In this document: piece after piece, positions 484-40,180 of the stretch | Layout of the letters: every line of letters begins with the position of its first letter | Position numbering within the stretch: position 1 is the stretch's first letter | Origin: Nitrospinota bacterium | Lineage (GTDB): Bacteria; Nitrospinota; Nitrospinia; Nitrospinales; VA-1 | DNA: 43,513 nucleotides | Assembly: GCA_014382285.1 (NCBI GenBank) | Contig: JACNKA010000143.1 | Span: 1-43,513, forward strand | Reading direction: 5' to 3' | The notes under the pieces: model-generated | What the model saw: only the letters and a program-made list of their open reading frames with translations | Databases searched by the model: none | What the model was told of the DNA's origin: nothing | Made by a program: the position numbers and the translations under genes

Positions 484-1428
484 TTAATTCATTTCTTCAG
501 GAGGTTCAATTTCCGTATCGTTCTCTTCCGACAGGGTTTGATCATCTATGGAAGTTTCTGAATCGTTCTCTTCAGGTTGTTTTTTTTCATCCGAAGAAAC
601 TTCCAAGCCATCTTCAGTGACCGTGTCCATTTGCACGTTTGCCACAGCAGCCAATTCTTCTGGCAAAGGAGGAGCAAGATTGAGAATGCGATCCATTTGT
701 TCTCCCAGCTTATCAATCCGCGCATCGATCACGCCAAAATTGGTTTCTACAACACAGCCACCCCGCTCTACTCCAGAGTGAGCCTCAAAAGTAATGTTTT
801 TTATATCACTGAATAAATGATGCAATTCCGGGCGAAAACTCTCCGCATATCCTTTATCCGTGGGATTAATCTTGATGACCATTGACTCGCGGTCAAGCAC
901 CGATTGAACCGCCAGGCGAATAATCTCCTGCACAGAATCATCACGCATAGAAAACTCAAAATGAATGACCTTCTTCGCCAGGCTAACTACCATTTCGACC
1001 ATCTCCCGCTCCACCTTGTCGTACATATTTTTGCGAAAACCGTTCAAGTCCGAAATCAAACCCTCCACAGTTTCCAGAAAAGGCTTGAATTCCTCGCGGG
1101 CGGCTTCTTCCCCTTTTTTAAATCCCTCAGCATACCCGGCATCATGACCCTCTTTTTTGGCATCCGCCTTGATCTTCGCAACCTGACTTTTCGCCTTATC
1201 CAGAGCATCCTTAAGAAGTTCTTTTACACCCTCTTTAGCTTTATTAACATTGGACTGGTCGAAATTCCTGGCGTTTTCCGAATCATAAGTGAAACCTCGA
1301 CGCATGGAAGGTTTCTCGATGATCAGATCGTTCAACTGATAAGAACGTACTTCCGTTGGGGACTTAGTTTTATCCCCGCGTGTCGCTTCAAGATTACTCA
1401 GAGTGAAAGATTTACCGAGTTCAGACAA
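484..1428 (-). CDS. fliH: Flagellar assembly protein FliH
   Basis: FliH binds FliI and links it to the export gate and C-ring. The 314-residue protein has a charged coiled-coil segment at about residues 55-125 (rich in K, E and A, with AGYAEGFKKGEEAA). A FliH/HrpE-type C-terminal domain follows at about 125-255 (EMVVSLAKKVIHFEF and GGCVVETNFGVIDARI). It ends in an unusual acidic tail of about 60 residues rich in D, E and S. The start is a TTG at 1428, chosen because AGGAG lies 6 bases before it on the minus strand; it overlaps the end of fliG by 8 bp. The protein is longer than the usual 230-260 residues, mainly because of the tail. The family call is firm from motif style and from its position between fliG and fliI. 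Confidence 0.88.
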   Translation of the reverse strand: MSELGKSFTLSNLEATRGDKTKSPTEVRSYQLNDLIIEKPSMRRGFTYDSENARNFDQSNVNKAKEGVKELLKDALDKAKSQVAKIKADAKKEGHDAGYAEGFKKGEEAAREEFKPFLETVEGLISDLNGFRKNMYDKVEREMVEMVVSLAKKVIHFEFSMRDDSVQEIIRLAVQSVLDRESMVIKINPTDKGYAESFRPELHHLFSDIKNITFEAHSGVERGGCVVETNFGVIDARIDKLGEQMDRILNLAPPLPEELAAVANVQMDTVTEDGLEVSSDEKKQPEENDSETSIDDQTLSEENDTEIEPPEEMN

Positions 1429-2419
1429 GGGCTTCTCCTCTACCTATCAGGATTTTTCCATTTCCTTCCAATTGCTTGCACACGGAAACTATATTGTGCT
1501 GAGCCCTTTCGACTTCGCTGATTTTCACCGGCCCCATAGATTGTAAATCCTCTTTTAGCATTTTCGCCGCGCGCTCTGACATATTGGAAAAAAGTTTTTC
1601 TTTCAATTCATCGGTGGCCGTTTTCAAAGACACCAACAAATCTTCAGGCTCTACTTCCTTAATGACAAGTTGAACTGCATTGTCATCGATTTCAAGAATA
1701 TCCTCAAAAACAAATCTCAAGTTACGAATCTCGTTGACCATACCCGGATCCACTTCTTCCATAGAAGTCAATATATCCGTTTCCATCGTCCTGTCCAGAG
1801 CTGCCATAACTTTAGCCACCACCTCAACGCCTCCCAGTTTTTTTCCCGACACGGCGGCGGATGTCCTGAACTCCTTCTGCAGGGCCTCGTCCAAATCACG
1901 AATAATATGCGGCTCTACCCTGCCCAAAGTCGCCAGGCGATGGACGATTTCCATACGTTTTTTTTCGGGGATATCTCGAAGAGTCTGACTTGCAGAATTA
2001 CCATCCAGATGAGCAAGAATAATTGCCGCCGTCTGAGGATGTTCATTCTTAATGAATGAAGCTATGGCCTTAGGCTCAAGAAGTTGAACGGTTTCCAAGC
2101 CACCGCCTATTTCTTCTCCCGGCGCGGTGATATTTTTTAAAATCTGCGTGGCCTTTGCCGGGTCAATCGCTTTCATCAGTGCCGATTTAAGAAAATCCAG
2201 CCCCCCCGTATTCAGTTCTCCGGTCTCCGTTTCGATCAGATTATAAAAATCTCTATTGACGGAGTCCATAACCGGCATAGCTATCTCACCCAAATTCGAC
2301 ATATAGTTGACAAGAGTCTGTATCTCGCCCTCATCCATATTCGCCAGCACCTGTGCGGCTTTTTCTTCACCCAGGTTCATCAGAAAAATGGCAGCTTTTT
2401 CGGGTCCATTAATTTTCAT
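1421..2419 (-). CDS. fliG: Flagellar motor switch protein FliG
   Basis: FliG is the C-ring protein that binds FliF and interacts with the stator to generate torque. The 332-residue length is typical. The middle domain carries the family hallmark EHPQTAAIILAHLD near residue 125. The C-terminal domain has the charged torque helix region (VFEDILEIDDNAVQLVIKEV) and ends with EVERAQHNIVSVCKQLE. The N-terminal domain starts with GPEKAAIFLMNLGEE. An in-frame GTG lies 6 bases upstream at 2425, but the ATG at 2419 has GAAGAG 5 bases before it and is preferred. The gene begins a few bases after fliF and its end overlaps the fliH start, which implies translational coupling. Confidence 0.95.
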   Translation of the reverse strand: MKINGPEKAAIFLMNLGEEKAAQVLANMDEGEIQTLVNYMSNLGEIAMPVMDSVNRDFYNLIETETGELNTGGLDFLKSALMKAIDPAKATQILKNITAPGEEIGGGLETVQLLEPKAIASFIKNEHPQTAAIILAHLDGNSASQTLRDIPEKKRMEIVHRLATLGRVEPHIIRDLDEALQKEFRTSAAVSGKKLGGVEVVAKVMAALDRTMETDILTSMEEVDPGMVNEIRNLRFVFEDILEIDDNAVQLVIKEVEPEDLLVSLKTATDELKEKLFSNMSERAAKMLKEDLQSMGPVKISEVERAQHNIVSVCKQLEGNGKILIGRGEALV

Positions 2420-2431
2420 AGTCACTCTTCT

Positions 2432-4027
2432 TTAAGATTTCGCTTTGGGTTCTTTTTCCCGCATCCATTTTCGGATTACACCGGCAGTATATTTTGGATC
2501 TTTGTGAACAAATTCCGCCACCGACTCTCGAACATGGGCCGATTCTGAGGCCATTTCACTGAGGCGGCGTTTCTCTTCATCTACCGCGTCAAAATCCCCC
2601 GTACTCAGTTGATCCGTGTCTGCAACCACTTCCACCGACATTGTCATCCAGTTGATGATGGGGCGAATGATTCGAGTGAAAAACAGAACGAGGAATATCA
2701 GGCCAACCACCAGCTTTCCAATTTCCATGCCAAGGTCAATCTGCTCAGCGCGAGCAATGCTCTCCCTCTGCGCTTCTAATTCGGACCGATCAAATTGAAT
2801 GTTCTCAACCTGAATGATATCCCCTCTTTCCTGATCAAATCCTACTGCGGATTGAACGATTTGCAGGTACTTGTCCATATCTTCCTGTGATCGCGGCTCA
2901 TATACAGGCGGATCTCCCGCCATGCTACCATCGATCATCACCGCCACACTGAGTTTGGAAATTTCTCCGAGAGGTTTCGAAACCCTTCGCACAACCTTGT
3001 TGATTTCATAATTGAACAGAGCATTCGATTTATTCCGCTGAGCCGCCTGTCCGGCAACTCCACCTGGAGCCTCACCGGAAGGGACCAAAGCCTGAACACC
3101 CGGAACCCCGCCCGGAGGCACAGCACCCGTAGAAGTCTCGCTGACCTGGTTCTCACTTCTCACGACCTGAGAGTCTGGATCATAAATTTCTTCAGTTCTT
3201 TCCACCCTTTCAAAATCCAGACTCGCCGTGACCTTAGCGATCACTTTTCCCGCCCCCAATGCATCTTCCAGCATTTTGATGATATTTTGTTGCAGTTCTC
3301 TTTCTACCTTCGTTTTATGTTTGAAATTGGATGACGATAACATCGCTTCCGTAGAGGCCTCCCTACCGCCGGAAAGCAAATTTCCTTTCAAGTCGACCAC
3401 CACCACATCCTGAGCATCGATGCCCCCGACACTGGCGGAAACCAGGTGAACGATTCCCTGTATCTGGGTCTCGGACAGGGTTTTACCGGATTTCACTTTC
3501 AACGTTATAGATGCCTTGCCCTTGGGTTTATCCTTGCGAAACAGATTGTCTTTTGGAATAACCAGATGGACCCGAACCTGGGCCACCGCGTCAAGGGTTT
3601 TGATCGTACGGGTCAGTTCACCCTGCAAGGCTCTTTGAAAATTCAATTTCTGCACAAATTCCGTCATTCCCAACGGAGTGTCCTCAAAGATTTCCAGTCC
3701 CACATCGGAACCCTCTGGCAAACCCTCGCTGGCCAACTGCAAGCGCACTTCATGTAACTTATCCGAGGAAATACGAATTGTCCGGCCTTCATTGGAGAGT
3801 TCAAAAGGAATTTTCTGGTTTTTCAATTTATCGACAATCGCCCCGGCATCTTCCTGTGAAAGATTGGCATAAAGGAGCTGGAAATCCGGGGTCTTCAACC
3901 AGAATAACATCACCAGTAAGGATGCCAGTGCCAAAGCCACAAGAGACAGAGCCGCCACTTTCTTGCCTTGTGAAAGTTCGTTGAACCGTTCGCCAAACTG
4001 CCGTAAAAAATCCAGAAAGTTTTCCAT
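2432..4027 (-). CDS. fliF: Flagellar MS-ring protein FliF
   Basis: FliF forms the MS ring in the inner membrane and is the platform for the rotor and export apparatus. The protein has 531 residues. A first membrane helix is at about 23-45 (AALSLVALALASLLVMLFWL). It is followed by YscJ-type ring-building domains (the DAGAIVDKLKNQKIPFEL and HLVIPKDNLFRKDKP regions), a periplasmic linker rich in G, P and A at about 300-330, and a second membrane helix at about 433-455. The cytoplasmic tail (VAEFVHKDPKYTAGVIRKWM) is the FliG-binding end. The ATG at 4027 follows flgC by 35 bp. No fliE lies between flgC and fliF, although that is where it usually sits. Confidence 0.95.
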   Translation of the reverse strand: MENFLDFLRQFGERFNELSQGKKVAALSLVALALASLLVMLFWLKTPDFQLLYANLSQEDAGAIVDKLKNQKIPFELSNEGRTIRISSDKLHEVRLQLASEGLPEGSDVGLEIFEDTPLGMTEFVQKLNFQRALQGELTRTIKTLDAVAQVRVHLVIPKDNLFRKDKPKGKASITLKVKSGKTLSETQIQGIVHLVSASVGGIDAQDVVVVDLKGNLLSGGREASTEAMLSSSNFKHKTKVERELQQNIIKMLEDALGAGKVIAKVTASLDFERVERTEEIYDPDSQVVRSENQVSETSTGAVPPGGVPGVQALVPSGEAPGGVAGQAAQRNKSNALFNYEINKVVRRVSKPLGEISKLSVAVMIDGSMAGDPPVYEPRSQEDMDKYLQIVQSAVGFDQERGDIIQVENIQFDRSELEAQRESIARAEQIDLGMEIGKLVVGLIFLVLFFTRIIRPIINWMTMSVEVVADTDQLSTGDFDAVDEEKRRLSEMASESAHVRESVAEFVHKDPKYTAGVIRKWMREKEPKAKS

Positions 4028-4062
4028 GGGAATTTTAGTTTAATGGTTTTTAAAGTTTATCA

Positions 4063-4500
4063 TTAACGACCCAGATCAATCGCTCGGAGGGCCATAGCCT
4101 TGGAAGCATTGAGTGCTGTGACGTTTGCTTCAAATGACCGTTGCGTGGTGACCATATTCACCATTTCCGTCATTTGATCTACATTGGGCATAGCAACATA
4201 ACCTAAATCATTGGCATCGGGGTGGCTCGGGTTGTAAACCAAACGCGGTTCTTCCTGATCTTCAATCACATCCGCAACCTGCACCTTTCTCAGTTTGTCA
4301 CCCAACTCGCTTTTAAAAGTATTACCAAATTCATTTTCCACAGGCATGGCAGTAATCAGGACATCTTTCCGGCGATAGGGGCCACCTTCAGGAGTCCGTG
4401 TGGTCTCCAAATTGGCCAGATTGCTGGAAATGGTTTCCATTCGCTTGCGCTGAACACTCAAGCCCGATGAGCTGATTTTCATATTTGTCAGAAAATCCAT
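4063..4500 (-). CDS. flgC: Flagellar basal-body rod protein FlgC
   Basis: FlgC is a proximal rod subunit exported through the flagellar apparatus. The protein has 145 residues, the normal family size. It has the N-terminal rod-protein motif (SGLSVQRKRMETISSNLANLET; Asn-Leu-Ala-Asn) and the C-terminal helix with MVNMVTTQRSFEANVTALNASK. The start is the ATG at 4500, preceded on the minus strand by GGCGAGG. A reading frame continues upstream to 4566, but that extension lies inside the promoter leader and lacks family similarity. It is the first gene after the sigma-54 promoter at 4572-4590. flgB, which normally precedes flgC, is absent from this locus. Confidence 0.93.
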   Translation of the reverse strand: MDFLTNMKISSSGLSVQRKRMETISSNLANLETTRTPEGGPYRRKDVLITAMPVENEFGNTFKSELGDKLRKVQVADVIEDQEEPRLVYNPSHPDANDLGYVAMPNVDQMTEMVNMVTTQRSFEANVTALNASKAMALRAIDLGR

Positions 4501-4571
4501 AATCCTCGCCTTCCCCAAAAAATTTGTTTTGTAAAAGAGGGGCTTTGCCCTCAACACTGTTTTCAAGTAAA

Positions 4572-6131: not shown

Positions 6132-7443
6132 CGAAATCCTCATCCCAGCAGGGAATCTTGACCTTGAAAGAAGTGCTCTTGCCTTCTTCGCACACGGCTT
6201 CAATCGTCCCTTGATGAGCCTTAATAATGTTGTGCGAGATGGCTAGCCCCAATCCTGTCCCCTTATCCTTGGTAGTAAAAAAAGGATTAAAAATTTTGGC
6301 CAGATCATCGGCAGAAATTCCACCGCCGCTATCGGTAATCGTAACAGCGATGAATTTGCGGGCTCCCGCACCCCGATCATTCTCGGCTACCGGTATAAGA
6401 GCCTTCCGGGTTTGTATGCCCAATTCGCCTCCGTCCGGCATGGCCTGAATTGCATTACGGATCAAATTAGGGAAAACCTGGCGCAATAACTCCCGGTCAC
6501 CATTCGCCATCATTTCTTCTTTGCCAAAATCACGCACCACTTTAATATTCTCCGGCACTTTAATATCGTCCAGGCCGTCCAGAAGTTGCGACAACAAAAG
6601 ATTGATATCGCATTGTTGTCGGGATGGCTGGGACGATTTGGCAAAAAGGAGAAGGGTGGATATGATGCGATCCATGTTCTGCACGCCCGCGCGGATATGC
6701 TGAACCAGTTTGGCTTTTTCGGGATCTTCTTCCAGATCTTTTTTGAGTAACGAGGCAAACAATTCGATGCTGCCCAGCGGGTTCCTGATTTCATGCGCGA
6801 TCCCGGCGGCCATCTCTCCCATCTCTCGAAGACGTTGGTTGCGGTGAGCCAACTCTTCCAACCGGCGTAGATCAGTTCTATCCTGCAGGATCAACACGGT
6901 TCCTATCTGACCGCCATGATTGTCCCATACCGGGGAAGCTGAAACACGGGCATGGATTATTTTCTTATCCGGAGTGGTGATATCCTGATCCCGGCTGATC
7001 GTTTCCCCTCGGTTTTTTTCAAGTCTGGACACCATGTTTTCAAACAGGTCAAACGGAAAAACTTCTTTCAGAGTTTTTGCTAAACAGTTTTGCGGCTTTA
7101 AACCCGTCAAGGTTCCGGCCGTCTGGTTGAACGTCGTGATCCGCCCCGATCGATCCACCACAATAACACCGTTGGCAAGGCTTTCCAGAATGTCGTTTAA
7201 ATAATTTTTAACTTCCTCTTTTTCAACAAGATTTTTTTTCAGCTCCCTGTTTTTGCCTTCCAACTCCAGATCGAGTTTTTTGACCCTCACTTGCAAATCA
7301 TCATAAGAACGTTGCAGTTGTTCGGTGACCTCGTTAAAGGCCTCCATATTCTTGATGAGAGCTTCTATATCTTTGCCGCTTTCTTTGCCGATTTCAGTCA
7401 TGGACGGAGAACTATCACTTGCATAATTTTGTATGGGCCTCAA
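6121..7443 (-). CDS. PAS-domain sensor histidine kinase (FlgS/FleS/AtoS type), cytoplasmic
   Basis: A 440-residue kinase, presumably the partner of the overlapping regulator. An N-terminal coiled coil (about 25-80) leads into a PAS domain (about 82-190, starting NDILESLANGVIVVDRSG). It continues with a HisKA domain with phospho-acceptor H217 in GIAHEIRNPLGS and a HATPase_c domain (N box NLIRNAIQAM, DSGGGI and GTGLGLAI). There is no membrane segment or signal peptide, so it senses an internal cue; flagellar assembly state is the inferred signal, as for FlgS and FleS. The ATG at 7443 is used; an internal Met at residue 15 is also possible. Its last 11 bp overlap the regulator start. Confidence 0.9.
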   Translation of the reverse strand: MRPIQNYASDSSPSMTEIGKESGKDIEALIKNMEAFNEVTEQLQRSYDDLQVRVKKLDLELEGKNRELKKNLVEKEEVKNYLNDILESLANGVIVVDRSGRITTFNQTAGTLTGLKPQNCLAKTLKEVFPFDLFENMVSRLEKNRGETISRDQDITTPDKKIIHARVSASPVWDNHGGQIGTVLILQDRTDLRRLEELAHRNQRLREMGEMAAGIAHEIRNPLGSIELFASLLKKDLEEDPEKAKLVQHIRAGVQNMDRIISTLLLFAKSSQPSRQQCDINLLLSQLLDGLDDIKVPENIKVVRDFGKEEMMANGDRELLRQVFPNLIRNAIQAMPDGGELGIQTRKALIPVAENDRGAGARKFIAVTITDSGGGISADDLAKIFNPFFTTKDKGTGLGLAISHNIIKAHQGTIEAVCEEGKSTSFKVKIPCWDEDFDEK

Positions 7444-7535
7444 AGGGCTTACCTCTGCGCAATGGGTTCTTGCTTATTGTCCGCTAGTGGGCGGAGTATG
7501 AGGCAGGAAAAACACGGTCTCATTATAAAATAAAA

Positions 7536-10127
7536 TCACCCTTCTTTTAATTGTTTTTCCCATTCCTGGATTTTCACCTTGGATTCCGCCGCCTGCCTGG
7601 TAAGATCGTCCGCATTTTCGGTTTTTACCAGTCGATTTAAGCCTTCTGTGACCTTTGAGGGATCGCCAAGTTTTTCGAGGCTTTCAATCATAATAAAATC
7701 CGCCCAATCACGGAGCGGGTTATCGGGGAAAAGCTCCCGGGCCGATTTCAACGCTTCCAGGGCCGGACCAAAGCGATTCAACTTATAAAAAGATATGCCC
7801 AGGCGATAATAAGCCTTCTTAAGATATTCGGGAATCACTCTTTCCTGGCGGTCATAAGTCCCGATCGTCTTTTGATAAGATTGCACAGCATCCGCCAGTT
7901 GATTCATATCTGCATAAGTTTCCCCGATGAGGAAGTGAACTTCAGCCTTATCTTCTGACTTCTCCAAAAAATTTTCATAGGCATCCAGGGCTCCTGAAAA
8001 ATCCCCCATCCCCTTCAAAGCGTCAGCCAAAAGTTTCATCGCATCTGGAGTCCACTTGCTTCTGGGATAATTTCTCAAAAAAGTTCGCCCAACTAATAGC
8101 GCCTCGTCGTAGCTTGAATTTGCCAGATGAATTTGACCCAGGTTGAGAAAAACCCGATCCCGATATGTTTTCTGAGAATCTATCGCCTTCACTTTTTCGT
8201 AGAATTTGACAGCCTCAGCAAACATTCCGATAGCCTGGTACGCTTCTCCCACCTGAAGGAGAGTTTGGGCATTGTTAATATCCCCAATGGGAAGACTGAT
8301 GAAGTCACTGTAAGAATACAAAATCGGCAGGTTACCATTCTGCTTGGCGTATTTGTCAACCAGAGCAATGAGTGCTTGCCGGATGTAACGATCCGCTTCC
8401 TGAAAGAACTGGGACTCCGTCCCCAGAGGTAGAAGTTTTTTAAACTCTTCTATCGCCTTCAGGTAGTTTTGCTCCAGCAAATAAGCAATGCCTCGGCTCA
8501 GCGTCACTTCTGCAAGAATATCGACGCTTCGAGCCTCAGCGAATATTTTTTCGTAGGTCTTGAACGGCTTGTAATAAGGACCCACATCAAAAACAATATC
8601 CCTTATTTTCAAACGTGGCTTGCGCACTCCGATATCAGCCATACGGACTTTCCCATACTGGGTTTCCGCAGTTTCTTCCCGGATTTCGTTGCCCTCTTCA
8701 TCCAAAACAGGCTTGCCTTTTTCATCCAGCTTCCGATCTTTTCTTTTCCCTGATTCGTCAAAAACAGCCAGAGCGTTCTGATACTTTTCTTCTACGATAA
8801 AAGAATCACCGATTCGGTTTAGAGCTTTATGTGCATTCTGGGAAACCGGGTCTAAATTCAATAGTCCAAAATAATGTTTTCTGGCTTTTTTGTAATTTTT
8901 TTGTGAATAATAGATTTCCGCCATGGAAAAATTGAGTTCAGGCTTCTCATTGAGTTCGCCCGGCCAGCGCCTGGCACCTGATTCAAAGATCTTTAGTGCC
9001 CGAGGATAATCTTTTTCCTCAAAAAACTTGTTAGCGATTTCAAAAACCCCCGCCTTGGCCTCAATATTTTTTGGAGACTTTCTAAGTATTTTCTGAAATT
9101 CGTTAAAGGCCTCATCCAATCGACCTTCTTTCATCAACATGGCGGCCAAACTATTTTTTCGGACTTCATTATAAAGACTGCCCGGCTTGGCCTTGAGCCC
9201 TTGATTGTAGAGCATTCTGGCCTCCAGGCTATAGCCAATCTCATCAAAAATACTGGCTACCTTCAACAGAGCGTGATCGTAAAATTTTGATTTAGGAAAT
9301 TTCCGCAGAGCAAGTTTGTAAGAAGCCAAGGCCTTATCAAAAACAGGATTCAATTCTTTGAAAGTGATACGATATTCTGCCTCTGCCTTTAAATAGAGAA
9401 TATGATCGAGGTATTTACTTTCTGGATATTTTGAACCGAATTCCCTAAGCATTTTCACGGCAGCGGGATATTTTGCCTCCTGAAATTCTTTCAAGGCTTT
9501 CTGGTAATCCTCCAAACCGTTCTTCCCTTTTTCTCCCTGGAGCTTGGCAACCAGAGCCTTAACTTCCTTCGGGCTATGACCGACCAACCTGGCTTTTTTA
9601 GGTAGCGGTGCCTGCTCAGGACCGGGTTCAATGCTTGTCTGAATCCCGGAATTTTGCTCAGGCTTTCCGATCCTGGTTTGCATAATAGGCCGGCTCTCGC
9701 CCTTGAGGTCCAAAATGATCTGCGGCTTTTGAGGATTTACAGAATGAAAAAACCGGGTATTTGAGTTTTTCAGCAAAAAGGTTACTTGTAAATCTTCGTT
9801 AATGGAACGGACTGAATATTGCTCCAGATTTTTATCCTTAAACGACTTGCCACGTACCCTGGGGCCTTTTGTAGTCTGTGGCAAAATCAGCGTGATCCGC
9901 TTGTTGGCAAAATCCGCCTTAACCTGATAAGAAGCCGATTCAGTCAGGTTGACTAGAATTCGAGTATAAATAGGGTGTCCCCCTATTCTTATAGTCGAAA
10001 CCTCTGGGTGGCGAAATGATTCAGACTCAAACCCCTGGGCCCACACAACTTCACCAGCCCCCTGCATGCCGAAAAGGGGAAACAAAAGTAACCAAAAGAG
10101 CCTGATAGAATTTAAAGAAATAGCCAT
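7536..10127 (-). CDS. Exported AMIN/TPR-repeat protein, 863 aa
   Basis: A large envelope protein of unknown function. A signal peptide (about residues 1-30, hydrophobic run LFWLLLFPLFGM, likely cleaved after VWA) precedes an AMIN-like beta domain at about 40-145 (TRILVNLTESASYQV, PQIILDLKG). AMIN domains occur in secretin PilQ and amidase AmiC, where they bind peptidoglycan or target the envelope. From about residue 205 to the end there are many tetratricopeptide-type helical pairs (for example ALKEFQEAKYPAAVKML and ALDAYENFLEKSEDKAEVHFLIGETY). It is the first gene after a sigma-54 promoter and lies 92 bp ahead of the kinase gene, so it probably belongs to the flagellar regulon. It could scaffold the motor or rod in the periplasm, but nothing in the sequence proves that. 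Confidence 0.85.
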   Translation of the reverse strand: MAISLNSIRLFWLLLFPLFGMQGAGEVVWAQGFESESFRHPEVSTIRIGGHPIYTRILVNLTESASYQVKADFANKRITLILPQTTKGPRVRGKSFKDKNLEQYSVRSINEDLQVTFLLKNSNTRFFHSVNPQKPQIILDLKGESRPIMQTRIGKPEQNSGIQTSIEPGPEQAPLPKKARLVGHSPKEVKALVAKLQGEKGKNGLEDYQKALKEFQEAKYPAAVKMLREFGSKYPESKYLDHILYLKAEAEYRITFKELNPVFDKALASYKLALRKFPKSKFYDHALLKVASIFDEIGYSLEARMLYNQGLKAKPGSLYNEVRKNSLAAMLMKEGRLDEAFNEFQKILRKSPKNIEAKAGVFEIANKFFEEKDYPRALKIFESGARRWPGELNEKPELNFSMAEIYYSQKNYKKARKHYFGLLNLDPVSQNAHKALNRIGDSFIVEEKYQNALAVFDESGKRKDRKLDEKGKPVLDEEGNEIREETAETQYGKVRMADIGVRKPRLKIRDIVFDVGPYYKPFKTYEKIFAEARSVDILAEVTLSRGIAYLLEQNYLKAIEEFKKLLPLGTESQFFQEADRYIRQALIALVDKYAKQNGNLPILYSYSDFISLPIGDINNAQTLLQVGEAYQAIGMFAEAVKFYEKVKAIDSQKTYRDRVFLNLGQIHLANSSYDEALLVGRTFLRNYPRSKWTPDAMKLLADALKGMGDFSGALDAYENFLEKSEDKAEVHFLIGETYADMNQLADAVQSYQKTIGTYDRQERVIPEYLKKAYYRLGISFYKLNRFGPALEALKSARELFPDNPLRDWADFIMIESLEKLGDPSKVTEGLNRLVKTENADDLTRQAAESKVKIQEWEKQLKEG

Positions 10128-10160
10128 AATTTTTGACGTAATTGCTTTTTTCTGTATTAT

Positions 10161-35563: not shown

Positions 35564-35643
35564 CTCGCGATACTAACAAGTTTTGTATGTGGTTTTTCAT
35601 ACTCAACTAATGGATTGAACGTTTAAGCTAAAGGGACTTTTGT

Positions 35644-38600
35644 ATGCCACTCACTGGTGGACCCGCAGATAAACTAGGCAACCGTTACGAAAATTTTTGG
35701 ACTCTATATTGCATTCTTGATGTGATGGATGAACAAGCAGAGGTAATTCGTCTAGAACCACCGGGGCAAGATGGCGAAGGCTTTGAATTTTACCTAGAAA
35801 AAAAGGGCGTAAAAGAGTACCACCAAGTTAAAAGACAAAAAAGCGGGGTTGAGCATTGGTCCTTAAATTCTCTTAAATCAGAAAAAATCCTTAGTAATTT
35901 CAAAAAAAAGCTCGCCAACCCCTCTTATCGTTGCTCTTTTATTTCCATCCAAGATGCTTCTCAACTCAGGGAACTAACTGAACGTGCAAATGCCGCAATC
36001 AACTTTAAAGAGTTTCAAACAGAATTTTTGAATTCACAACAAACGAGAAAGGGCTTTCAGACCCTATCTCAAATTTGGGCTCTCGAAGATCAAGAAACTT
36101 TTGAGAACCTAAAAAGAATTATTGTCCGAAACATTGATGAAAACACCTTAAAGACCCATCTAATTACAATCGCAGGATATCTCGCGGAAGGTAATCCAAC
36201 TGTCATTTTAGAAGAGTTATCTTCATTAGTTTCTGAATCAATCCATAAAAATTTGACTGCATTTGATATCTGGAGTTTTTTGGAGTCTCGAGGAGTCAAA
36301 AGAAGAAAATGGGGCAAAGACCCGCATATCATTAACAGTGTAAACAACACGACAAAAAGGTATTTCGAAAGTGGAAAAAGGGACTTTATAAATGAAAAAG
36401 CGATCCCTCAAGAAGAAGTTAAAGTTATTTTGGATTGGTTTGAGGCTGAAAACAAAAAACAAGTGATGATGGTCACCGGGGTAGCAGGTGGAGGTAAAAC
36501 GAGTGTAATCGCACAATTATTAGACAACTTACATAAAAATAGCTATCCAATTTTGGCCTTTAGACTTGATAGGTTACCTCTTGAATCTATCTTGCCAGAC
36601 AAAACAGGAGAAGAACTTGGGCTGCCAGGTTCCCCAGCCAAAGTTCTTGCAGCAGCATCCAATAAAAAGAAAAGTTTGTTGATTATCGATCAACTTGATG
36701 CCGTCAGTTTACTTTCAGGACGAAAACCTGAGTTTTTCGATTGCATACAGGAAATTCTTGAAGAAGCATTATGTTTTGAAAATCTAAGAATTATCTTAGT
36801 CTGTAGACAGTTTGACTTAGATAACGATCATCGCTTTCGACAGTTGGCGGAACCAAATGGTTTGGCTGAAAAACTTAACGTTTCCAACTTAAAGGAAAAG
36901 CAAGTTCTCGACATAATTCCCGAATGGACTTTGAAAAAAAATAGTTTAAGCCCACAGCAAATCAAATTACTGACTATTCCGCTGCATCTCAAACTTCTCT
37001 CAGAAATTTGCAAGAATTCAGAAAAAACAGAATTATCTTTTTCCACAAGTAAGGATTTGTTTGATTTGTATTGGGATCACAAGCAATTTCAGTTACAAGC
37101 CCGCCTTAACAAACCTTTCAACTGGTTTCATATTATCAACAAATTAGTTGATGATTTAAATAAGAACCAGATCCTTTCAAGCCCAAAATCGCTACTAGAT
37201 GAATTTGGACCTGACACCAAGGCCCTAGAATCAGAGAACGTATTGGTTGTGGATAATCAAAGGTATGCCTTTTTTCATGAGGGGTTCTTTGATTACTGTT
37301 TTGCGAGAAGGTTCATTACACAAAACGTAAGCATAGTTGAATTATTTCTAGAAGGAGAACAGGGACTTTTCAGACGCTCTCAAACACGTCAGATCCTTTT
37401 ACATCTCAGGGATGGAGATCGTAGCCGCTATATTCTTGAGCTGGATGCCTTCTTAAATAACCCTCAAATTCGTTATCACCTCAAACACGTTGCTATTTCA
37501 CTATTATCTCAGCTAACGGACCCTATTGAAGAAGAATGGGGAATCATTGCTTCTCTCTTGAGTATCGTAGATAAAGAGGAAGCAAATGAGATTTGGGGAA
37601 TATTCTGGGGATCAAGCTCCTGGTTCCGCTTGTTAGATTCAATAGGGGAAATTGAAAATTGGCTAACAAAGTCTGACGAAGAAACAATAAATCGAGCTGT
37701 CAGCCTGTTTCCGCAGATTTTGGAAACTGACGGGACCAGAATTGCAGAAATAATAGGGAAATTCACACATGTCTCTGAAAAATGGAACCAACGACTTCGA
37801 AGTGTATTTTCATGGGATTTTGAAAACTTGAACAGGGGACTATTTGATTTATTATTAAAACTGATTAATGAAGGAATTTTTGACACGGAACTTCTTTCCA
37901 ATGATAAAAATGTTGACTTTGGCATGTCACTTAGCGGCTTACCCAAAAGGAACCCCACATGGGGTTCAGAAGCCTTAGGTCAACTTCTGAATCGTTTGTT
38001 ATGGCTTATCTCTAATCAGGGAAGAACCAATCCATTTGAAGATTCTCCGCGAAGGGAAACCATTGACAAAGATTTGATTTTTGACTCTGCCAAAGGCAAC
38101 CCCTTGGCGTTTTACGAAAACATTTTTCCTTTTATTCTGAAAATTATAGAGACAAATTTAACAGATAGAGGCGACCTGCCTTATAGAGACAAAGTTTGGT
38201 TTTACCGAGTTCCTCATGAAAAGTTTACCACTCAAGACGACCTTTTATCTGCAATGGAATTAGCATTTTCAAATATTGCAAAACAAAACCCAGAATTTTT
38301 CTCTCATATAGCAAGTCAGATAAAAAGCCGCGAATACGACACCATACAATTTCTATTAACGCGCGGATACACTGCCAACGGGGAATATTTTGCAAGTGAA
38401 GCCGTTTCTTTTCTTTCTGAAACCCAAACAAGATTGAAAACAGGTTCCGCAAGCGATAGCTATTGGGCTACACGAGAGTTGGTCGAATCCATTGCGCCTT
38501 TTTGCACACCAGATATTCTCCAAACCTTGGAAAATCTTGTTTTAAACTACTCCGACAAATATGAAAAAAAGTCTCATAATCGCCGTCGCGTTGGTTACTC

Positions 38601-40146
38601 TCAATTCACCCTATTAGGTGGGTTTAACTCGGATTTATTATCTTCGAAGGGAAAGCAGCGGCTACAGGAATTACAACGAAAGTTTAATCAAAGCGTCCCA
38701 GAAAAACCTTCAGGCATAAAGTCAGGTTGGGTCAAATCGCCCATTTCCTCATCCTCCGCAGATAAGATGAATGACGAACAATGGTTAAAGGCAATAAAAC
38801 GTTACAACCAAGAAGACATGTCTGAATGGAGGGAAGATAGCTTTTATGGAGGTGCGCATGAGCTGTCTAAAGAAGTAGAGCGGTTAAGTGAACTCGAACC
38901 GCATAGGTTTGCTAATTTAGCCTTGAGAATTCCCCAGAATAGCCAATTTTATTACTTTGATGCAATCTTAAGAGGCATGGCAAAAAGCGCGGAATCATTA
39001 GATGTCGAAACTATCTCAAAAGTCTGTTTGTATTGCCACGATCTGCCCATCAAACCTTGCGGAATAACAATTTCAAAAGCCATCCAAAGCATTAAAGGTC
39101 AAAACTTGCCTAATAATTTATTAGACATCCTAGTTTGGTACGCCACGGAAGACCCTGATCCCGAGAAGGAGTTATGGCAAGTCAAGACAGGAGATAATTA
39201 TTATTACGGTGGTGATATTTTTTTGTTTGGTCTTAATACCGTTCGTGGCCATTCAGCTCTTGTCATGGGTGACTTGATAGCGACAGATAAAAATCGGATC
39301 AATTATTTCCTACCCGCTTTAAAAAAAATGATATTAGACCCCTCACCTGCCGTTCGAGCCTATATAGCCTACACACTGAATGCCGTTGACAATCATGACA
39401 GGGAATTAGCCGTTGAACTTTTTATAACACTTTGTCAATTTGAAGATAGTTTTTTGGGAACACGCTATGTCGAGAATTTTTTATTTTTTGCATCTCAAAC
39501 CCATTTCGAGCAATTAAAAACCATCGTTGAAAGAATGGTTGAATCTAAGGAGGAGGATGTTGTTGATTCTGGAACTCGAATAGGATGCCTAATAGGATTG
39601 GGCATTGAAGAAGCCCGACCCTTAGTGGAAAAATGTGCCTCGGGAAATGAAGCTCAAAGAAAAAGTGCGGCAGAAATATTTGCCCATAATTTATTTAAGG
39701 CACCTTTTCGCAGATACTGTGAAGGGAAGTTAAAACTATTTTTTCATGACCCCAGCGACGAAATTAAAAAGACAGCAAGCAATTTCATTCGATTTAAAAG
39801 CGATGAAATAAAAGAATACCTTCCCTTAGTTCAACACTTTATCGAAAGCCCCGCTTTCCATTTTGGCTTAGATAAACTAATTGAATCCCTAGATGAAACA
39901 ACTGCTAATTTGCCAGAATTATCAGTGTTCGTTGCAAATCATTTTTTGGGATTAGCGGGAGAAGATGTCCGAGATTTTGGGTCTAGAAAATTTATGTCTG
40001 GACAAAACGTGAGCAAACTTATAATAAGGGGTTATAGCCAAGCAAGTGACCCTGCTTTGAGATCCCAATACCTAGACTTGATAGATCAAGTTGTAAAACT
40101 TAGGGTTTATGGCTTGGATGAAGCTTTAGCCACTTTTGAGCGATAA
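35644..40146 (+). CDS. Avs-like antiphage STAND NTPase with N-terminal Cap4-like nuclease domain (1500 aa)
   Basis: A very large single-gene unit whose layout fits AVAST-type (Avs) antiphage proteins. Residues 1-215 resemble Cap4/DUF4297-type nucleases: G12-x2-YE16, an acidic patch D43-G-E45-G-x-E48 and QVK at 61-63, together a PD-(D/E)xK-like core. A P-loop NTPase of STAND/NACHT type follows at about 260-560, with Walker A GVAGGGKTS (K285), Walker B LLIIDQLD (D349, D352) and an arginine in LVCRQFD. The remaining roughly 900 residues are helical, with HEAT-like repeats near 1230-1480 (SPAVRAYIAYTLNAVDNHD and AQRKSAAEIFAHNLF), the expected target-sensing part. The ribosome binding site AAGGGA lies 7 bases before the ATG. 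The gene is visibly more AT-rich than both neighbours, which suggests transfer. The target and Avs subtype cannot be told. Confidence 0.8.
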   Translation: MPLTGGPADKLGNRYENFWTLYCILDVMDEQAEVIRLEPPGQDGEGFEFYLEKKGVKEYHQVKRQKSGVEHWSLNSLKSEKILSNFKKKLANPSYRCSFISIQDASQLRELTERANAAINFKEFQTEFLNSQQTRKGFQTLSQIWALEDQETFENLKRIIVRNIDENTLKTHLITIAGYLAEGNPTVILEELSSLVSESIHKNLTAFDIWSFLESRGVKRRKWGKDPHIINSVNNTTKRYFESGKRDFINEKAIPQEEVKVILDWFEAENKKQVMMVTGVAGGGKTSVIAQLLDNLHKNSYPILAFRLDRLPLESILPDKTGEELGLPGSPAKVLAAASNKKKSLLIIDQLDAVSLLSGRKPEFFDCIQEILEEALCFENLRIILVCRQFDLDNDHRFRQLAEPNGLAEKLNVSNLKEKQVLDIIPEWTLKKNSLSPQQIKLLTIPLHLKLLSEICKNSEKTELSFSTSKDLFDLYWDHKQFQLQARLNKPFNWFHIINKLVDDLNKNQILSSPKSLLDEFGPDTKALESENVLVVDNQRYAFFHEGFFDYCFARRFITQNVSIVELFLEGEQGLFRRSQTRQILLHLRDGDRSRYILELDAFLNNPQIRYHLKHVAISLLSQLTDPIEEEWGIIASLLSIVDKEEANEIWGIFWGSSSWFRLLDSIGEIENWLTKSDEETINRAVSLFPQILETDGTRIAEIIGKFTHVSEKWNQRLRSVFSWDFENLNRGLFDLLLKLINEGIFDTELLSNDKNVDFGMSLSGLPKRNPTWGSEALGQLLNRLLWLISNQGRTNPFEDSPRRETIDKDLIFDSAKGNPLAFYENIFPFILKIIETNLTDRGDLPYRDKVWFYRVPHEKFTTQDDLLSAMELAFSNIAKQNPEFFSHIASQIKSREYDTIQFLLTRGYTANGEYFASEAVSFLSETQTRLKTGSASDSYWATRELVESIAPFCTPDILQTLENLVLNYSDKYEKKSHNRRRVGYSQFTLLGGFNSDLLSSKGKQRLQELQRKFNQSVPEKPSGIKSGWVKSPISSSSADKMNDEQWLKAIKRYNQEDMSEWREDSFYGGAHELSKEVERLSELEPHRFANLALRIPQNSQFYYFDAILRGMAKSAESLDVETISKVCLYCHDLPIKPCGITISKAIQSIKGQNLPNNLLDILVWYATEDPDPEKELWQVKTGDNYYYGGDIFLFGLNTVRGHSALVMGDLIATDKNRINYFLPALKKMILDPSPAVRAYIAYTLNAVDNHDRELAVELFITLCQFEDSFLGTRYVENFLFFASQTHFEQLKTIVERMVESKEEDVVDSGTRIGCLIGLGIEEARPLVEKCASGNEAQRKSAAEIFAHNLFKAPFRRYCEGKLKLFFHDPSDEIKKTASNFIRFKSDEIKEYLPLVQHFIESPAFHFGLDKLIESLDETTANLPELSVFVANHFLGLAGEDVRDFGSRKFMSGQNVSKLIIRGYSQASDPALRSQYLDLIDQVVKLRVYGLDEALATFER

Positions 40147-40180
40147 CTTTTTCTAGCTTCAAACTAACGATTCTTATTAT

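What the first reader, a model, noticed from the sequence alone, without database searches (positions are those of the whole stretch)
35644..40146. Single-gene Avs-like antiphage system (Cap4-like nuclease + STAND NTPase + long helical sensor)
One 1500-codon AT-rich gene sits between housekeeping-like genes. Residues 1-215 resemble a Cap4-type nuclease, 260-560 a STAND P-loop NTPase (Walker A K285, Walker B D349/D352), and about 900 helical residues follow. Established knowledge: Avs proteins use the C-terminus to detect conserved phage proteins (terminase or portal) and then activate an N-terminal effector. The sensor here shows no strong resemblance I can recognise, so it may be a new subtype.
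Basis: partly seen in the sequence, partly recalled or inferred. Interest (0 to 1): 0.78.

Follow-up and report, generated by a model that had tools for sequence, protein, structure and literature searches.

The report
Single-gene NLR-like DNase immune receptor
This bacterium carries one large, recently acquired gene built like an animal NLR immune receptor - a DNA-cutting head, an ATP-driven switch and a long coiled sensor - which probably kills the infected cell when it detects a phage, and it belongs to a widespread family that the reference libraries searched do not name.

Summary
In detail: 35644-40146 is one intact 1500-aa ORF, its start fixed by an N-terminal motif shared with about 70 full-length relatives. 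Residues 1-215 are a Cap4-type PD-(D/E)XK nuclease (E38, E48, Q61-x-K63). Residues 257-560 are a STAND/NACHT NTPase (K285, D349/D352) that models at pLDDT 92, with portal-bound Avs4 and NLRP3 as best folds. Residues 561-1500 are an all-helical HEAT-like superhelix (pLDDT 91). The gene is a lone, AT-rich insert in a short intergenic gap that is empty in 13 relatives of the genus.

170 contigs across at least eight phyla hold relatives. Cousins carry a SEFIR or caspase domain in place of the nuclease on the same NTPase-plus-sensor body, the hallmark of NLR/Avs-type receptors. No Avs1-5 model matches the window protein; PADLOC offers only candidate 'PDC-M54A' on the NTPase part. A distant full-length homologue is solved (PDB 9n00/9n01/9yix, named only 'AAA family ATPase').

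Verdict: an Avs-like bacterial NLR, a new variant of a known kind. Antiphage function is inferred. The trigger is unknown; I favour a conserved phage protein, with abortive DNA degradation as output.

The parts
35644..40146 (+). whole receptor gene, 1500 aa (Cap4-like nuclease - STAND/NACHT NTPase - HEAT-like sensor)
35644..36288 (+). residues 1-215: Cap4-type PD-(D/E)XK endonuclease effector
   Evidence: PF14130 in 11/41 relatives, best 1.9e-8, window 0.029; alpha/beta model, pLDDT mostly above 90
35755..35832 (+). nuclease motif: E38, E48, Q61-x-K63 (predicted active site)
   Evidence: K63 invariant, E38 and E48 at least 90% in 41 sequences
36412..37323 (+). residues 257-560: STAND/NACHT NTPase with helical and winged-helix parts
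   Evidence: nSTAND1 3.1e-6, above cut-off; Foldseek Avs4 8dgf 5.2e-13, NLRP3 9.4e-10
36478..36501 (+). Walker A GVAGGGKT, residues 279-286 (K285)
   Evidence: G282, G284, K285 invariant in 43 sequences
36676..36702 (+). Walker B region LLIIDQLDA, residues 345-353 (D349, Q350, D352)
   Evidence: D349, Q350, D352 invariant in 43 sequences
36802..36828 (+). sensor-1-like motif CRQFDLDND, residues 387-395
   Evidence: R388, D391 invariant
37270..37308 (+). winged-helix motif FFHEGFFDYCFAR, residues 543-555 (H545)
   Evidence: F543, H545, D550 invariant
37324..40143 (+). residues 561-1500: all-helical HEAT-like superhelix, presumed sensor
   Evidence: pLDDT 91.4, helical hairpins; CAND1/importin-type folds; HEAT and alphaRep sequence matches
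38821..40143 (+). C-terminal module, residues 1060-1500; a separate overlapping ORF in two relatives (L029, L031)
35564..40180 (.). inserted segment absent from 13 relatives of the genus; only this gene in it

Best explanation
It is a stand-alone NLR-like (STAND) antiphage receptor. At rest the NTPase holds nucleotide and the HEAT-like superhelix keeps the protein off. A phage product binds the superhelix; I think a conserved phage protein is most likely. The NTPase then exchanges nucleotide and the protein oligomerises, which brings the N-terminal Cap4-type nucleases together, and they degrade phage and host DNA (abortive infection). Shown here: domain content, conservation of catalytic residues, predicted folds, effector swapping on a conserved NTPase-plus-sensor body, horizontal acquisition. 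Inferred: defence function, autoinhibition, oligomerisation, dsDNA cleavage, ligand.
For: nSTAND1 Pfam hit above cut-off. Cap4_nuclease in relatives. N-part model pLDDT 92; best PDB folds are Avs4 bound to phage portal, then NLRP3, NLRP9, NOD2, NLRC4 and Avs5. C-part model pLDDT 91, HEAT-like superhelix. The same NTPase, middle and C-terminal parts lie behind a SEFIR N-terminus in L007 (2e-46, 4e-24, 6e-21) and a caspase N-terminus in L139 (4e-35, 1.5e-5, 4e-15), with clean controls on 5096 ORFs and on shuffled proteins. Full-length homology to 9n00 (profile E 5e-57), whose N-terminus resembles Lamassu LmuA. AT-rich single-gene insert at a site empty in 13 relatives. Some relatives sit next to type I or III restriction, Druantia or ubiquitin-like operons or integrases. 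Active-site residues and low dN/dS are kept across the family.
Against: No experiment. The window gene itself is not in a defence island: the 29 other window genes scanned gave no dedicated defence gene. Island association of relatives is modest (type I restriction in 4 of 116 neighbour genes scanned). Sensor regions evolve only slightly faster than the rest, with no sign of diversifying selection. The Cap4 match in the window protein itself is below Pfam's cut-off.
Confidence: 0.8

Rival explanations
1. It is a direct member of a described AVAST type (Avs1-Avs4) that recognises the phage terminase or portal protein.
For: Same tripartite plan; the Avs4-portal complex is the best fold match of the N-part; weak NTPase matches of relatives to Avs2 models and of profile A1 to Avs2 9o4e, 4e-4.
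Against: No Avs model in PADLOC or NCBIfam matches the window protein at E up to 1. Profile A3 of the C-terminal part lists no Avs protein among its PDB matches. Its fold search returns HEAT superhelices, no Avs, among the best 50.
Confidence: 0.1
2. Same receptor, different trigger: it guards a host factor or responds to plasmids or other incoming DNA rather than binding a phage protein directly.
For: Several relatives are carried on plasmids themselves, so inter-element competition is possible; bNACHT25 shows that sensing through a host factor (DnaJ) occurs in a related receptor (PMC12169576).
Against: Nothing found here points specifically to plasmid or host-factor sensing; related STAND nucleases of known function are antiphage (PMC12931631).
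Confidence: 0.2
3. It is a non-immune STAND regulator (stress or developmental signalling).
For: STAND proteins also include regulators of metabolism; a maltose-system regulator appears among the fold matches (8bob).
Against: DNase, SEFIR or caspase effectors on the same body, no DNA-binding output domain seen, patchy distribution and recent insertion.
Confidence: 0.04

Closest known systems
PDB 9n00/9n01/9yix, 'AAA family ATPase', 1523 aa
   Same: Homologous along the nuclease, NTPase and much of the C-terminal region (profile E 5e-57; C-part 2e-30); same size and order
   Different: Distant: single-sequence matches cover mainly residues 241-663 plus weak C-terminal stretches (E 2.7e-15). Its function is not given in the database and I found no held paper on it.
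AVAST Avs1-Avs4, in particular Avs4 (8dgf)
   Same: Effector - STAND NTPase - sensor plan with a nuclease output (PMC12931631); best fold match of the N-part
   Different: No sequence match to Avs models in the window protein; HEAT-like sensor with no Avs match; ligand unknown
bNACHT proteins (e.g. bNACHT25/32, clade 6: PD-(D/E)XK + NACHT + NCH1)
   Same: PD-(D/E)XK DNase at the N-terminus and NACHT-type switch (PMC12169576)
   Different: NACHT Pfam match below cut-off (E 0.0072); C-terminal part is about 940 residues of HEAT-like repeats instead of an NCH domain (the NCH comparison is from the paper, not tested)
PADLOC candidate PDC-M54A
   Same: NTPase region matches (7.7e-21, residues 271-560)
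   Different: Candidate without a description in the library and not found in held papers; best stretch does not cover the nuclease or most of the sensor
Lamassu LmuA, Hachiman HamA, CBASS Cap4 nucleases
   Same: Same nuclease class (PF14130; LmuA match of the 9n00 N-terminus; weak HamA match, E 1.3)
   Different: Those nucleases work with SMC-like, helicase or cyclic-nucleotide sensors, not with a STAND receptor (own knowledge)

Membership tests
AVAST (Avs1-Avs5) | Tripartite plan: N-terminal effector, central STAND NTPase, C-terminal sensor (PMC12931631) | tested here: met
AVAST (Avs1-Avs5) | Match to a curated Avs model | tested here: not met
   no Avs model in PADLOC or NCBIfam at E up to 1 for the window protein; some relatives match Avs2 weakly in the NTPase
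AVAST (Avs1-Avs5) | Sensor homologous to that of a known Avs type | tested here: not met
   HEAT-like fold and sequence matches, no Avs match
AVAST (Avs1-Avs5) | Activation by phage terminase, portal or other phage protein | not testable with these tools
   needs co-expression or binding assays
STAND/NACHT NTPase | P-loop, Walker B, STAND sensor and winged-helix motifs | tested here: met
   nSTAND1 27.5 bits vs cut-off 27.1; invariant motifs; NLRP3 NACHT fold
bNACHT | NACHT domain by Pfam PF05729 cut-off | tested here: inconclusive
   E 0.0072, 16.6 bits vs 26.7; a distant relative (L006) passes with 32 bits
Cap4 nuclease (PF14130) | Profile match above curated cut-off | tested here: inconclusive
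   window 15 bits vs 26.2; 11 of 41 family members match at E up to 0.05, best 1.9e-8
Cap4 nuclease (PF14130) | PD-(D/E)XK active-site residues | tested here: met
   E38, E48 at least 90%, K63 invariant in 41 sequences
Cap4 nuclease (PF14130) | dsDNA endonuclease activity | not testable with these tools
   needs purified protein
Antiphage defence system | Genes sit in defence islands | tested here: inconclusive
   some relatives beside restriction, Druantia or integrase genes; window copy is not
Antiphage defence system | Reduces plaque formation | not testable with these tools
   needs a phage assay

The most novel reading that the evidence does not exclude
A separate, unnamed superfamily of bacterial NLR-like receptors that shares one HEAT-repeat sensor and STAND switch while trading DNase, SEFIR and caspase effectors, and that senses a class of phage ligand not used by Avs1-5.
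Probability: 0.45. Interest if true: 0.65.

Novelty: new variant of a known kind. Interest (0 to 1): 0.5.

Why it matters
It adds a large (170 contigs, at least eight phyla), mostly unlabelled branch to the bacterial relatives of NLR immune receptors. The conserved HEAT-like sensor with interchangeable effectors shows the same modular logic as animal and plant NLRs. The sensor is under purifying selection, so a conserved ligand is a testable expectation. As a single 4.5-kb gene it is easy to clone and test. The family is missed or only partly matched by PADLOC, so defence catalogues probably undercount it in Cyanobacteria, Actinomycetota, Chloroflexota and Planctomycetota.

Tried and rejected
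(1) Single-sequence scans of genome contigs and viral contigs found no relatives, because the patterns drawn from one sequence are not conserved; the five-sequence profile A1 worked. (2) No relative in the 76 other genomes held from the same phylum nor in phage records. (3) Considered that the C-terminus might be a housekeeping family: the fold search gives only generic HEAT superhelices at low TM-score and Pfam gives only HEAT/Cnd1 fragments; rejected. (4) Looked for diversifying selection in the sensor: dN/dS is mostly 0.05-0.35 in all regions; values above 1 occur only where there are almost no synonymous changes; rejected. (5) Tried to identify 9n00 in the literature and among plasmids: no paper found, best plasmid relative 32% identical. 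(6) Promoter scan equals the shuffled expectation and the terminator scan is uninformative.
Full report
The observation. The window holds one ORF at 35644-40146 (+), ATG start, 1500 aa. It is AT-rich (GC 37-40% against 44-52% around it). The first residues, MPLTGGPADKLGNRYE, are shared with relatives (MPLPGG..DKxGNRYE), so the start codon is secure.

Domains by sequence. Pfam nSTAND1 matches residues 270-425 at 3.1e-6, just above its curated cut-off; NACHT and several AAA models match more weakly, and HEAT/Cnd1 fragments match near 1200-1265. Residues 1-223 alone match Cap4_nuclease PF14130 at 0.028, below cut-off. Of 41 aligned family members 11 match it at E up to 0.05, best 1.9e-8. PADLOC gives the candidate PDC-M54A (7.7e-21, residues 271-560) and no Avs model. 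NCBIfam gives no Avs model either.

Relatives. tblastn of plasmid records found long relatives in Rhizobium, two Sinorhizobium plasmids, Isosphaeraceae and Herpetosiphon at 22-24% identity, and NTPase-only matches in Segatella and Nostoc; phage records gave none. A five-sequence profile then found 170 contigs with relatives in a collection of 84,980 species genomes; 80 were kept. Seventy are at least 1400 aa and are 27-42% identical to the window protein along its length. They lie in Cyanobacteriota, Chloroflexota, Planctomycetota, Actinomycetota, Armatimonadota, Pseudomonadota, Myxococcota, Verrucomicrobiota and unplaced bins. In a quick tree the window protein is a lone long branch near a cyanobacterial clade of 13. 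None of the 76 other genomes held from its own phylum has it.

Conserved sites. In 43 aligned N-parts G282, G284, K285, D349, Q350, D352, R388, D391, F543, H545 and D550 are invariant. In 41 nuclease domains K63 and W72 are invariant and E38 and E48 nearly so, giving the PD-(D/E)XK pattern E38...E48...Q61-x-K63; some relatives have S in place of Q61. dN/dS between pairs of relatives is mostly 0.05-0.35 in every region, so these proteins are under selection; the few higher values rest on very few synonymous changes. Residues 631-900 are among the fastest-evolving stretches, while the nuclease start, the NTPase core and the winged helix are slowest. One pair (L018/L020) is 92% identical in residues 226-420 but 51-58% in 701-1060, with dS raised as well, which looks like exchange of a sensor segment.

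Predicted structure. Residues 1-640 model at mean pLDDT 92.1, pTM 0.87. The best PDB folds are Avs4 bound to the phage portal (5.2e-13), then NLRP3, NLRP9, NOD2, NLRC4 and Avs5. TM-scores are modest (about 0.2-0.6), which I put down to several domains in one query. Residues 560-1500 model at pLDDT 91.4 as helical hairpins throughout. The nearest folds are CAND1, importins and SF3B1, i.e. HEAT superhelices, with low TM-scores, and the sequence profile also finds alphaRep, PP2A-A and transportin HEAT repeats.

Effector swapping. I cut the family profile into four parts: nuclease, NTPase, residues 659-1059 and residues 1059-1500. The Nostoc protein L007 has a SEFIR domain at its N-terminus (1.2e-13), no nuclease match, and matches the NTPase (2e-46), middle (4e-24) and C-terminal (6e-21) parts. 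The Tolypothrix protein L139, annotated as a caspase family protein, matches at 4e-35, 1.5e-5 and 4e-15. Segatella L006 lacks a recognisable N-terminal effector but keeps the NTPase and part of the C-terminus. Against 5096 ORFs from all loci held, the middle and C-terminal profiles hit nothing outside the family at E up to 1, and shuffled proteins reach only E about 0.3. A separate profile comparison agrees for the NTPase. One conserved receptor body with different effectors is the plan of NLR and Avs proteins (PMC12931631; PMC12169576).

Solved homologue. Profile A1 matches PDB 9n00/9n01/9yix ('AAA family ATPase', 1523 aa) at 5e-57 over residues 6-659 and 983-1517; A3 matches its C-terminal half at 2.2e-30. 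Its N-terminus resembles LmuA of Lamassu (7.9e-8). It is not among the best 50 matches of the two fold searches, whose library ends in April 2026, so it was probably released later; no paper naming it was found. Someone has therefore solved a distant member of this superfamily, which limits novelty.

Genomic setting. The two flanking genes are convergent and about 8-220 bp apart in 13 relatives of the genus (G030-G039, G041-G043; in G041 one gene is split between two contigs). Alignment of ten of these gaps shows the site without the insert. The window has 4.6 kb there with only this gene; G040 has an unrelated 3.6-kb insert. So the gene looks like a single-gene acquisition at a site that takes cargo. 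No integrase accompanies it. The 29 other window genes scanned include no dedicated defence gene. Around relatives, type I restriction HsdR (4 genes), type III restriction, Druantia and other defence genes occur among 116 neighbour genes, and the Sinorhizobium copy lies near a multiubiquitin/ThiF operon and an integrase; this is suggestive, not strong.

Mechanism. Shown: domains, motifs, folds, effector swapping, insertion at a site empty in relatives. Inferred from STAND/NLR knowledge: the superhelix binds a trigger, the NTPase switches, the protein oligomerises and the Cap4 heads cut DNA, ending the infection by cell death. The trigger is not known. Purifying selection on the sensor favours a conserved ligand, most simply a conserved phage protein; a guarded host factor is possible.

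Verdict. The finding is supported. The gene is Avs-like in plan and probably in action, but it fails the sequence test for named Avs types and has a HEAT-like sensor, so I file it as a new variant of bacterial NLR-like (STAND) receptors.

Noticed in passing
L126 about 6573-10130 (G040, same site): A closely related genome carries a different 3.6-kb insert at the same intergenic site, with a Rieske-ferredoxin-like gene and small ORFs: the site seems to take cargo repeatedly.
   Followed up: partly
L029:3545-8018 and L031:8001-12477: In two Rubrobacteraceae bins the receptor is split into two overlapping ORFs at window residue about 1057-1064, in a low-confidence loop of the model; could be a true two-gene form or a shared frameshift.
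   Followed up: partly
L018 versus L020: Nearly identical NTPase but strongly divergent residues 701-1060 with raised dS: possible sensor-segment exchange by recombination.
   Followed up: partly
L139:2144-13722 (Tolypothrix plasmid): A trypsin-like peptidase gene followed by two large caspase-family genes, the first fused to the same NTPase and sensor.
   Followed up: no
L138:5983-11811 (Nostoc sp. MS1 plasmid): A 9n00-like receptor gene appears interrupted by an IS630 transposase gene, leaving nuclease-NTPase and C-terminal parts as separate ORFs.
   Followed up: no
window 484-4566: Flagellar genes (FliG-, FliF- and basal-body-rod-like by eye, not searched) lie at the other end of the contig.
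   Followed up: no
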